From the NCBI GenBank assembly GCA_002221725.1, contig NJFT01000022.1:235370-299369 (forward strand): 64,000 nucleotides of DNA. Direction: 5' to 3'. Within the stretch, counting starts at the first letter, position 1. The number at the start of each line of letters is the position of its first letter. A program made the position numbers and the translations under genes. Below are positions 45,553-50,115 of this stretch, in pieces. Origin of the DNA: Scedosporium boydii. Its lineage: Eukaryota > Ascomycota > Sordariomycetes > Microascales > Microascaceae. Below the pieces are notes generated by a model that had not been told where the DNA came from, searched no databases, and worked only from the letters and a program-made list of their open reading frames with translations.

Positions 45553-48500
45553 ATGACTCAAAATCGTGGATCGACCGTGGAAGTGCCTTGGGATGCCCCT
45601 CCGCCGGCGAGGGTTAGCATGGATGTCCAAGCGGCGTTGGTGTCTGATGGGTTTAACATGCCTGATCTGGAGGCGGCAAGGGATGCTCCCCCGCCTTATG
45701 GGGAGCTGCATGATCAGTTGCAGTTTTCTCAGCCTGGGTTTGAAGCTGGAGCGAACGTTACCGGTATGGATTATCTTGGCCCTCGGAGATAATTGGATGG
45801 TCTGGTATAAGCTGGGCTGTACCCTACAGAGGAAGCTGGAATTGCTAACGTGACTGTCCTGTTTGTTCCGTTATAGACGATGGTCGTGTCAACATCAACA
45901 TCAATCAGAAAAGTAGGAAATTTGCCGAGTTGCTCGGCCATACACTCCGAGCCCAAGTCGCCGCGGACGCTGCCGCCCTTCCTCAACCACCCGTCACCCC
46001 AGCCTACATCCCGCCAACTCTCGGTGGTTTGCCCGGCCAGACTCCGCCTCCTAGACTCAATGTCGTCATCCAGATCGTCGGATCACGCGGTGACGTCCAG
46101 CCCTTCGTCGCCCTAGGCAAAGTCCTCAAAGACACCTACGGACACCGCGTCCGCCTCGCCACCCACGCCACCTTCCAGACCTTTGTCGAAGAGAATGGCC
46201 TCGAGTTCTTCAACATCGGAGGCGACCCCGCCGAGCTCATGGCCTTTATGGTCAAGAACCCGGGCCTGATGCCCGGTCTCGATGCGTTAAAGTCGGGGGA
46301 GGTGAGCAAGAGGAGGAGGGGAATGCAGGAGATTCTCATGGGCTGTTGGCGGTCGTGCATCGAGCCTGGAAACGGCTTGGGGCCGGCGATGCCGGCACAT
46401 AGGAAGGGCTTGGAGATGAATTATGATGAGGTTACGCTTCCTGGGGATCCGAAGGAAAGCCCTTTTATTGCTGATGCTATTATTGCTAACCCACCGAGCT
46501 TCGCGCATATTCATATTGCGGAGAAGCTTGGTGTTCCGCTACACTTGATGTTCACGTAAGAGCAATTTCAAGTGTTTCCCGGGACTAATAGTTTCCGATG
46601 CTAATGCATGTCTTGCAGGATGCCTTGGTCGCCGACTCGAGCGTTCCCCCATCCGCTGGCTAACATTCAGTCTTCGAATACCGACGATGTCATGACCAAC
46701 TATATGTCCTATGCGCTTGTCGAGATGATGACTTGGCAGGGCCTGGGAGATGTTATCAATCGATTCCGAACTACTGTTCTCGATCTCGAACCTCTATCCT
46801 TGATTTGGGCTCCTGGCCTTCTCACAAGACTGCAAATTCCTTATACATATTGCTGGTAAGCACGGCTGGAACTGTCAAGATCCCCGTTCAGGTTAAGTAC
46901 TAAACACTACAGGTCTCCGGCTCTCATCCCCAAACCCAATGATTGGCAACGAAATATCGATATCTCCGGCTTCTTTTTCCTCAACCTCGCCAATGCGTAC
47001 ACTCCGGACCCGTCTCTCGTTGAGTTCTTAGAAGCCGGCCCGCCGCCCGTTTACATCGGCTTCGGTTCCATCGTTGTTGACGATCCCAACGCACTGACTC
47101 GCCTCATTTTCGACGCCATCCACCTAGCCGGTGTTAGGGCCCTCGTGTCCAAGGGGTGGGGAGGTCTTGGCGCGGATGACGTTGGAATTCCCGAAGGAGT
47201 GTACATGATTGGAAACTGTCCCCATGATTGGCTTTTCAAGCACGTTTCCTGCGTCGTCCACCACGGTGGTGCCGGTACATCGGCGGCAGGTATCTACGCA
47301 GGCAAACCCACAGTCGTCGTCCCGTTCTTTGGCGACCAGCCGTTCTGGGGTGCCATGATTGCGCGGGCTGGTGCAGGCCCGGAGCCCGTACCTTACAAGG
47401 ATTTGACTGCCGAGAAGCTTGCTGGGGCTATCACAACGGCTCTCAAACCTGAAACGGCGGACAAGGCTCGCTCTCTAGGCGAAAAGATCCGCGAAGAAAA
47501 GGGTGCTGATCTCGGTGGAAAGAGTTTCCATGATCAACTTGACCTCAAGGCGATACGTTGTTCACTAGTGCCGACTCGAGTGGCAGCTTGGAGGGTGAGG
47601 CGGACAAAGGTTATTCTCAGTCCCTTCGCGGCAGAGACGCTCGTGCGAGAACGCATTATCCAATACTCCGACTTGAAGCTATGGCGGCCGCGAGAATACA
47701 ACACGGAAGGCCAGCCCTGGGATCCCATATCCGCGGTTACTTCGTCGCTTCTCATGGATATAAGTGAGGTTGCTCTGGCCGTCGCCGATTTCCCTCGTAG
47801 CATCTTCCAATCCTCGAAGGAATCGAAAGATACAGGGAGCTCGTCCGGATCGTCGCATGGGCGGCCGGGTAAGTCGGTGGACATGAGTAGTGGTACTTTG
47901 GTCACCGCGCCCTCGACGGCCACTACTACTGCGGAGTCAGTTGTCCCAGGATACGTCGAACTGCCCAGCCCCATTCCGGGAGAGCCGCAGCCGCCGGTTG
48001 AATTACCCGGGGATATGCCAGCTCTTCCATCTGAGCGAAGCGGGCTGCGTGGGTCCGCTGATTTCCCTGCTTATGCTACTGATATCTCCCAGCTAGAACC
48101 AGCTAGTAGACCAACAACTGCGGGAACTGGACTGAGAGAGGGACACCCATCGCCTACAACTCCGGATAGAACGGCGTCTAGCCTTATTACCCCCCTGGTT
48201 ACAGTGACTAGTGACCCGACGAGCGAGAGCTCCGCGGGGAAATCCTCCCGTTCCCCTCTCCGTTTCCCCAGCAGTCCGCTCCTGCGTGGACGGAGCACAA
48301 GTCCGTACGGTCGGCCCCAGTCGTCGCACGACGAGAATCCTTACCGGGACGTCAACATCGAGGACTTGCGCGGTGCCGGCACCAGTGTCCGCAGGATCGT
48401 GACTACGGGCGTTAAGTCGCCCATGAACTTCTGCCTCGGTCTCGCTAAGGGTTTTAGGAACGTGCCGAAGCTGTACAACGACGACACCGTTCGACCGACG

Positions 48501-50115
48501 GAGAAGGTTACGGGCTTGGCTAGCGGGTTCAAGGTGGCGGGTAAAGAGTTTGGCCTAGGCTTATACGATGGGCTATCTGGCCTCGTTACGCAGCCGATGA
48601 AGGGCGCTGAGAAGGAAGGGAGAAGGGGCTTTGTGAAGGGGGTTGGCAAGGGTGTTAGCGGTTTCCTCGTGAAGCCTGCTGCCGGTAAGCGATTACGACT
48701 ACTCCGCCGGCCGACTTGGCATGATGTTGCCGTCCTCTCGGCAAGTGTGGATTATTTCTATTTGTATCATTGCTAACGGATGTGGTGCAGCTCTTTGGTC
48801 TCTTCCCGCGTACACGATGCAGGGCGCATATGTGGCGATGAAGAACCGGTTCGCGAAGAGCATGCAAAACTATATCATCAGCTCTCGCATGATCCAGGGA
48901 GCGGACGCCTTTGAGGCGGCGACTCCGGAGGAGAAGGCGGAGGTCTTGGCGGCGTGGAGGAATGCCAAGTATGACCTCAAGGAATTGTACCAGCGCAAGC
49001 TCAAGGAGGCGAAGGAAGCCAAAGAAGCCCAGGATTCACAATCCCAAGGAGGTGAGAACGCTATGGACCGCGCAGCGTTCGATCGCCACCACCACGAGCA
49101 TCACCATCACCTCCACGCCGACGTCGCGGCACTCCTATCGCCCAAGTTCGGCAACGAGTCGATCGGCCACTTCGACGCGCATGGCAAGAGACTGCTGAAG
49201 GGTAAGCAGGCATGGCGGCGGAACCACATCGAGGCGGACCTTGATCACCACCCCAACCACGACGAAGAGTTCGAGAGGGCCATCCAGGCGTCGATCCGCG
49301 AGACGTCGCGAGGCGATCCGGAGGAGGACCTCATGGTCGAGCGGGCGGTGCGCGCCAGCGTGTCGGAGTTCCAGAGACGTGGCGGTCCCCTGCCGCACCC
49401 GCAGATGGTGGATGTAAAGCGGCCCGAGGGCCCATCAGGGACGACGGATCCGGAGGAGGCGGATCTCGAGATTACCGATGAGGAGTATCAGGCGCTTATT
49501 GAGAAGGCGATCCAGCAGAGTATGGCGATGCATGCGGCCGGATTTACCGAGGGCGTTCACGACGATCATGGAGTGAGTGATAGCGATGACGAGGAGCTGA
49601 GACGAGTTCTCGAGCGATCGAAGACAGACCTGTCGGTTCACGGAGGAGAAGAAACCTCAGACGACGAAGACCTCAAGAAGGCGATCGAAGAGTCCAAGAC
49701 GAACGTTTCGGAGCAGCTGCCGCAGGAGGACGACGACGAAGAGCTGAAGAAGGCGATCGAGGCGTCTAAGGAGGCAGCGGCGCAACATACGGACGCGCAC
49801 GCCGAAGAAGAGGAGATGCTCCGACGAGCCATCGAGGAGTCCAAAGCGGCGCACCAGCAGGAGGCGAACCGGGCGGCGGTGGCTAGGACGGAGGAGGAGA
49901 TTATTCTTGAGTTTGTGCGGAAGCAGAGTCTTGCCGAGGAGGAGTTTCGCAAGTTGAAGGCGAAGGAGAAGGGGAAGATGAAGGAGGAGCCGAAGAAGGA
50001 AGAAGAAGATGACGAGGAGGATGATGATGACGAGGAACTGAAGAGGGCGCTGGAGATGAGTTTGGGGATTGATGAGGAGGGATCCGGTAGGGCGGGACCT
50101 TCGAATTTGGGTTGA
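45553..50115 (+). CDS. GT28/Atg26-like UDP-glycosyltransferase fused to a VPS13-like segment and UIM repeats
   Basis: Exons 45553-45763, 45877-46555, 46619-46855, 46913-48684 and 48791-50115 give 1407 residues. Residues 130-150 hold the GT28 N-terminal entry LNVVIQIVGSRGDVQPF. The nucleotide-sugar site HHGGAGTSAAGIYAGKPTVV...FFGDQPFWG starts near residue 492 and matches sterol 3-beta-glucosyltransferases (Atg26/Ugt51); the Atg26 PH/GRAM domains are absent. After a Ser/Pro-rich linker, residues ~880-985 (GFKVAGKEFGLGLYDGLSGLVTQP, GFVKGVGKGVSGFLVKP) resemble the amphipathic C-terminal region of VPS13/ATG2 proteins. A His-rich patch follows, then about eight UIM-like motifs from ~1124 to the end, for example EELKKAIEASKE and EELKRALEMSLG. 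It is probably a lipid glycosyltransferase working at membranes and able to bind ubiquitin; that combination is inference. Confidence 0.93.
49256..50077 (+). repeat. Array of about eight UIM-like motifs (coding)
   Basis: In the last exon, units with acidic residues then Leu/Phe-x-x-Ala-Ile-x-x-Ser start near 49261, 49325, 49478, 49586, 49661, 49730, 49805 and 50026. Consensus E/D-E-x-L-x-x-A-I-x-x-S-x matches ubiquitin-interacting motifs. The units near 49586-49805 are most alike; the fourth lacks the consensus Ala. Confidence 0.8.

What the first reader, a model, noticed from the sequence alone, without database searches (positions are those of the whole stretch)
45553..50115. Glycosyltransferase fused to a VPS13/ATG2-like amphipathic segment and a tandem UIM array
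Seen: one reading frame through five exons joins an Atg26-like GT28/GT1 fold, a Gly-rich segment reminiscent of the C-terminal end of VPS13 (LVTQP, KGVGKGVSGFLVKP), a His-rich patch and about eight ubiquitin-interacting motifs. Known: Atg26-type enzymes glucosylate sterols and act in pexophagy, VPS13/ATG2 C-termini bind membranes or lipid droplets, and UIMs bind ubiquitin chains. Inference: it may be a lipid-modifying enzyme recruited to ubiquitin-marked membranes or cargo, a possible link between lipid glycosylation and selective autophagy or endosomal sorting.
Basis: partly seen in the sequence, partly recalled or inferred. Interest (0 to 1): 0.75.

Follow-up and report, generated by a model that had tools for sequence, protein, structure and literature searches.

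The report
Ubiquitin-wired fungal sterol glucosyltransferase paralogue
A fungal gene encodes an enzyme that probably attaches sugar to membrane sterols, joined to a membrane-binding piece like the tail of VPS13 and to many ubiquitin-binding motifs, with a conserved docking site for a ubiquitin ligase at the other end, which suggests that ubiquitin controls where or when this lipid is made.

Summary
One five-exon gene (45553-50115, + strand) encodes 1407 aa: a sterol-glucosyltransferase domain (best solved match yeast UGT51/Atg26), an ATG_C segment homologous to the VPS13 C-terminal region, and a C-terminal array of seven strict plus one or two degenerate ubiquitin-interacting motifs (UIMs). 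[quoted passage not shown] The protein is not Atg26: the same genome has a separate PH+GRAM+GT gene. Among the proteins listed by three database searches, at least one PPxY lies before the GT domain in 120 of 121 UIM-type proteins and 111 of 120 of a sister ATG_C family without UIM array, but in 0 of 120 canonical Atg26 proteins. Best reading: a PH/GRAM-less sterol-glucosyltransferase lineage held to membranes by ATG_C helices and linked to the ubiquitin system by PPxY, with UIMs as an extra in one subfamily. Ubiquitin binding, Rsp5 binding, enzyme activity and location are untested. New variant of a known kind.

The parts
45553..50115 (+). whole gene: exons 45553-45763, 45877-46555, 46619-46855, 46913-48684, 48791-50115; 1407 aa
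   Evidence: GT..AG introns of 113, 63, 57 and 106 bases, no internal stop
45688..45699 (+). PPPY (residues 46-49), strict PPxY in the distal position
   Evidence: distal PPxY in 110 of 121 (120 listed relatives plus the window)
45996..46007 (+). TPAY (residues 111-114): degenerate copy of the proximal PPxY that lies 28 aa before GSRGDVQP in relatives
   Evidence: strict in 118 of 121; the window, P0001 and P0046 lack it
46053..47555 (+). sterol glucosyltransferase catalytic region, residues about 130-590 (interrupted by introns 2 and 3)
   Evidence: Pfam PF03033, PF06722, PF00201; UGT51 5xvm/5gl5 E 2e-74
47706..47813 (+). conserved post-GT segment, residues about 641-676; overlaps the start of the first long helix of the paralogue model
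47814..48359 (+). variable linker, residues about 677-858
   Evidence: mean majority fraction 0.22 (residues 676-858) against 0.84 in the GT region
48360..48846 (+). ATG_C (VPS13 C-terminal type) segment, residues about 859-985, interrupted by intron 48685-48790
49087..49116 (+). His-rich patch, residues 1066-1075; region poorly conserved
49252..50112 (+). UIM array, residues about 1121-1407; Ala of the seven strict cores at 1130, 1152, 1206, 1264, 1288, 1313, 1386; Val variant at 1239; degenerate motif about 1333-1352

Best explanation
It is a membrane-associated UDP-sugar:sterol glucosyltransferase of a lineage separate from Atg26. In place of the PH and GRAM domains of Atg26 it has VPS13-type ATG_C helices, which probably hold the catalytic domain on a membrane (lipid droplet, endosome, vacuole or growing autophagosome). 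The N-terminal PPxY probably docks the Rsp5/Nedd4 ligase, and the C-terminal UIM array probably binds ubiquitin on the enzyme itself or on neighbouring membrane proteins, so that sterol glucosylation is raised, moved or stopped where the ligase has acted. Shown here by sequence: the gene, the three homologies, the motifs and their conservation. Inferred: sterol as acceptor, membrane binding, ligase docking, ubiquitin binding, and the order of events.
Against: No binding, activity or location data. Single UIMs are weak by Pfam: 10 of 120 listed relatives carry a precomputed UIM or UIM_2 label; of 30 that I chose from the 120, 15 match UIM and 19 match UIM_2 at E up to 0.1. The window's proximal PPxY is degenerate, leaving one strict motif. 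In the UIM type the proximal PPxY sits in a conserved stretch next to the GT domain, so part of its conservation may be structural. UIM spacing beyond the first pair varies, so no chain geometry is implied. The best hydrophobic moment in ATG_C (0.56) is only about the 95th percentile of shuffled maxima (0.553). Fold similarity of the ATG_C part to VPS13 was not shown.
Confidence: 0.5

Rival explanations
1. Self-regulation: PPxY brings Rsp5 to ubiquitinate the enzyme and the UIMs promote coupled mono-ubiquitination, so the motifs mainly set enzyme level or activity, not targeting to ubiquitinated cargo.
For: UIMs are described as binding ubiquitin and promoting ubiquitination (PMC2951365, passages). 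PPxY is also kept in the sister family that lacks a UIM array (111 of 120 listed), so ligase docking is the more general trait.
Against: Four to seven conserved UIM cores look like more than self-modification needs (judgement).
Confidence: 0.25
2. Selective-autophagy factor like Atg26: UIMs bind ubiquitin on cargo organelles while ATG_C reaches the growing autophagosome.
For: [quoted passage not shown] The yeast Pichia pastoris enzyme acts in selective degradation of peroxisomes (PMC9698648, passages).
Against: Atg26 is present separately in this genome; the segment matches VPS13 and no ATG2 match was seen; in Yarrowia the PH-GRAM enzyme is not needed for pexophagy.
Confidence: 0.12
3. Primarily a Rsp5 adaptor or endosomal sorting protein, like arrestin-type adaptors, with the glucosyltransferase reaction secondary.
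For: PPxY plus UIM plus membrane segment resembles endocytic adaptors (recalled).
Against: The GT region is the most conserved of the regions compared (mean majority fraction 0.84) and its motifs line up with active UGT51.
Confidence: 0.08
4. Chance or low-complexity artefact: acidic repeats mimic UIMs, proline-rich tails mimic PPxY, Gly-rich helices mimic VPS13.
For: A low-complexity linker and an acidic tail are present; the PDB search with the UIM tail found no UIM structure.
Against: Shuffle controls and the contrast between three compared families.
Confidence: 0.02

Closest known systems
Atg26 / UGT51 (fungal PH-GRAM sterol 3-beta-glucosyltransferase)
   Same: GT28 plus GT C-domain, aligned motifs, best sequence and fold match
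   Different: No PH or GRAM match; has PPxY, ATG_C and a UIM tail; separate clade with Atg26 alongside in the same genome
ATG_C-bearing fungal sterol glucosyltransferases noted by Levine 2022 (PMC7613979), citing Grille 2010
   Same: GT plus ATG_C, probably the same subgroup
   Different: The passages read do not mention a UIM array or PPxY in them; Grille 2010 itself was not read
VPS13 (bridge-like lipid transfer protein)
   Same: ATG_C segment
   Different: No VAB or VPS13_C Pfam match in this protein, both present in the VPS13 of the same genome; an enzyme of 1407 aa
UIM proteins of endocytosis and sorting (epsins, Eps15, Hrs/Vps27)
   Same: UIMs in proteins that work at membranes (named in PMC2951365)
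   Different: Fused to a glycosyltransferase and with more UIMs (UIM numbers of the others recalled)

Membership tests
fungal sterol 3-beta-glucosyltransferase (GT1) | GT28 N-domain and GT-B C-domain with donor-site motifs | tested here: met
fungal sterol 3-beta-glucosyltransferase (GT1) | glucose transfer from UDP-glucose to a sterol | not testable with these tools
   needs an enzyme assay
Atg26 orthologue | PH and GRAM domains before the GT domain | tested here: not met
   one search lists neither at E up to 1; the C156 frame of the same genome has both
Atg26 orthologue | groups with Atg26 in a GT-domain tree | tested here: not met
   60-row FastTree, window with the UIM type (21 tips, support 0.963), Atg26 apart (19 tips, support 1.0); midpoint-rooted
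VPS13 family | ATG_C segment | tested here: met
VPS13 family | VAB and VPS13_C domains | tested here: not met
   one search lists neither at E up to 1
VPS13 family | ATG_C fold matches a solved VPS13 structure | tested here: inconclusive
   window piece modelled at mean pLDDT 52.1, not searched; GT domain fills the lists for the paralogue model
UIM proteins | UIM above the curated score | tested here: met
   29.3 bits, cut-off 21
UIM proteins | ubiquitin binding | not testable with these tools
   needs pull-down or NMR
Nedd4/Rsp5 PPxY ligands | conserved PPxY outside folded domains | tested here: met
   one strict copy in the window protein, in its variable N-terminal part
Nedd4/Rsp5 PPxY ligands | WW-domain binding or ubiquitination by the ligase | not testable with these tools
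   needs a binding assay

The most novel reading that the evidence does not exclude
Filamentous fungi have a second sterol-glucosyltransferase system, separate from Atg26 and wired to ubiquitin at both ends: a PPxY that brings in the Nedd4-type ligase and a UIM array that reads the ubiquitin it writes, with a VPS13-type tail placing the enzyme on the membrane. Sterol glucosylation would then be a ubiquitin-triggered lipid mark on chosen organelles.
Probability: 0.3. Interest if true: 0.75.

Novelty: new variant of a known kind. Interest (0 to 1): 0.52.

Why it matters
What steryl glucosides do in fungi is poorly understood, as a review of them says in its abstract, and in the passages that I read that review describes sterol glucosyltransferases as PH-GRAM-GT proteins (PMC9698648). 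The sequence evidence points to at least one further lineage, carried next to Atg26 in this genome and in the same genera, with a different membrane module and a predicted tie to ubiquitin ligase and ubiquitin. It gives single-motif predictions that can be tested in laboratory fungi and would connect lipid glycosylation to the ubiquitin system.

Tried and rejected
Atg26 orthology: rejected (no PH or GRAM match, separate Atg26 in the genome, tree). ATG2-like tail: the segment hits VPS13; no ATG2 was seen among the five own-genome matches or the three PDB matches (VPS13A, VPS13C and a weak unrelated one). K63-specific chain geometry from UIM spacing: considered and dropped because spacing varies outside the first pair (22 residues is the commonest spacing). 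The PDB sequence search with the UIM tail found no UIM structure (one weak unrelated hit, E 0.087). The window ATG_C piece folded poorly (mean pLDDT 52.1) and was not searched; a whole paralogue (P0141) folded well (83.4), but the GT domain fills the PDB lists, so no VPS13 row appears among the 50 shown in either list, which excludes nothing. The viral structure library gave GT domains, including endornavirus polyproteins. The DUF7119 hit (E 0.011, below its cut-off) was ignored. The taxonomic limit of the UIM type was not found: the best 120 of 5083 matches are listed, likewise 120 of 6872 and 120 of 1190. Conserved gene order in other fungi was not tested. Rows left out: 17 of 121 proteins without a text anchor were left out when the ATG_C profile was built, and matched it afterwards; the tree took every sixth usable row of each list (60 rows).

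Literature: searches of an open-licence PMC library only. Searches returned 0 papers (sterol glucosyltransferase with ubiquitin-interacting). Lists seen in part: 19 listed of 21; 20 of 55; 20 of 166; 25 of 186; 7 of 7; 4 of 5; 8 of 30. Passages read: PMC7613979, PMC5091641, PMC10512406 (an Aspergillus fumigatus sterol glucosyltransferase Afu2g02220, whose subfamily I did not determine), PMC9698648, PMC2951365. Grille 2010 was not read.

Full report
Gene. Four GT..AG introns (113, 63, 57 and 106 bases) join five exons, 45553-50115, into 1407 codons with no internal stop. The closest named relatives are from Parascedosporium for this protein and Lomentospora for the C23 paralogue and Atg26, so the source is probably one of the Microascaceae (inference; family placement recalled). 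All 120 listed relatives join the GT domain, the ATG_C segment and UIM cores in one predicted protein, so this is not two genes run together.

VPS13-like segment. A 231-aa stretch (residues 822-1052) matches VPS13A (E 5e-9) and VPS13C (E 2e-8) in the PDB. In its own genome it finds, besides itself, two paralogous glucosyltransferases (C23, E 1e-13; C280, E 2.3e-9) and one locus on C93 (E 2.5e-8), whose frame has VPS13_VAB and VPS13_C domains. The local alignment score to own VPS13 is 136, against a maximum of 56 in 1000 shuffles (z 18.5); hhalign gives 98.2% (E 3e-14). A profile built from 104 of 121 family members (17 without the text anchor left out) matches all 121, 119 of 120 sister proteins (the miss is a record marked partial) and 0 of 120 Atg26 proteins; for the 104 this is by construction. 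In the paralogue model the part forms long helices 592-637, 659-703 and 717-780, with block pLDDT of about 69-90 apart from the edges. The start of the first helix aligns with residue 647 of the window protein, right after the GT region and ahead of the variable linker. Amphipathic character is marginal by hydrophobic moment. [quoted passage not shown]

UIM array. Seven strict cores (hydrophobic-x-x-Ala-hydrophobic-x-x-Ser) lie in the last 300 residues; shuffles average 0.09 and none of 500 reach seven. Across 121 proteins (120 listed plus the window) the count is 4 to 7, and in no protein did any of 500 shuffles reach the observed number. Pfam supports UIM in the window protein (29.3 bits, cut-off 21). 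The precomputed labels show UIM or UIM_2 in only 10 of the 120 relatives; of 30 that I chose from these, 15 match UIM and 19 match UIM_2 at E up to 0.1. The commonest spacing of neighbouring cores is 22 residues (the first two in the window protein); other spacings vary widely.

PPxY motifs. These were not in the finding. Upstream of the GT domain, 110 of 121 proteins have a distal PPxY, 118 of 121 a proximal one exactly 28 residues before GSRGDVQP, and 108 have both; one (P0001) has neither. The window protein has the distal PPPY; its proximal copy reads TPAY. The sister family around the C23 paralogue, whose 120 listed members include Aspergillus, Penicillium and Mycena proteins, has at least one in 111 of 120, in a variable context. 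Canonical Atg26, taken as a control from the same database (120 listed of 1190), has none upstream of the GT domain in 120 of 120, although its longer N-terminus would give about 10 by chance. PPxY-containing proteins are bound by Rsp5 WW domains (PMC2171029, abstract in the listing). The genome has a ligase frame with three WW domains and a HECT domain. A caution: next to the GT domain the proximal site of the UIM type lies in a well conserved stretch.

Family history. A 60-row GT-domain tree separates three clades: UIM type with the window (21 tips, support 0.963), C23 type (20, 0.997) and Atg26 (19, 1.0). In the own-genome paralogues C23 and C280, GT and ATG_C are present and no UIM array was found in coding-strand frames (C280 frames show isolated single core matches). 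A PPxY lies in frame before the GT domain in C23, and in a separate open frame upstream in C280, whose membership of the gene was not proved. The simplest history is that PPxY plus ATG_C belongs to the whole non-Atg26 lineage and the UIM tail was added, or kept, in one branch. The rows come from the best 120 of each search, and the named UIM-type rows are, as far as I recognise them, Sordariomycetes, so the outer limit of the UIM type is not known.

Mechanism. The best-supported reading is an active sterol glucosyltransferase whose membrane attachment comes from ATG_C helices instead of PH-GRAM, with a ligase docking site and a ubiquitin-binding tail. Whether ubiquitin serves to bring it to marked membranes or to control the enzyme itself cannot be told from sequence. 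Self-regulation is a serious rival because PPxY is more widespread than the UIMs.

Novelty. The GT-ATG_C fusion is published. In an open-licence PMC library, no paper held both 'sterol glucosyltransferase' and 'ubiquitin-interacting', and searches returned none; the listings (20 of 166; 25 of 186) were seen in part. Closed papers were not searched. I file it as a new variant of a known kind.

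Noticed in passing
window 50476-51092, minus strand: Neighbouring RCR-family gene (PF12273, E 1.6e-12), convergent with this gene, itself with PPxY-like motifs (PPPQY, PPPVY); yeast Rcr proteins are tied to Rsp5 (recalled). Whether the pairing is conserved was not tested.
   Followed up: partly
G000 C23 (L025) and C280 (L026): Two further GT+ATG_C paralogues (about 850 aa judging by relatives of C23) with a PPxY upstream and no UIM array found.
   Followed up: partly
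window residues 71-80 (DDGRVNININ): A highly conserved short motif between the two PPxY sites (DGRVDV/DGRIDV-like in the sister family), of unknown role.
   Followed up: no
window residues about 1333-1352 (TEEEIILEFVRKQSLAEEEF): Strongly conserved tail motif (EEDIVMEYVKKQSLAEEE in relatives) that only partly fits the UIM pattern; may be another interaction motif.
   Followed up: no
BFVD structure search: Several endornavirus and hypovirus polyproteins show regions similar in fold to this glycosyltransferase type.
   Followed up: no
window 31812-34709, minus strand: ABC half-transporter frames that look like a peroxisomal fatty-acid (PXA/ABCD) transporter, by eye only.
   Followed up: no
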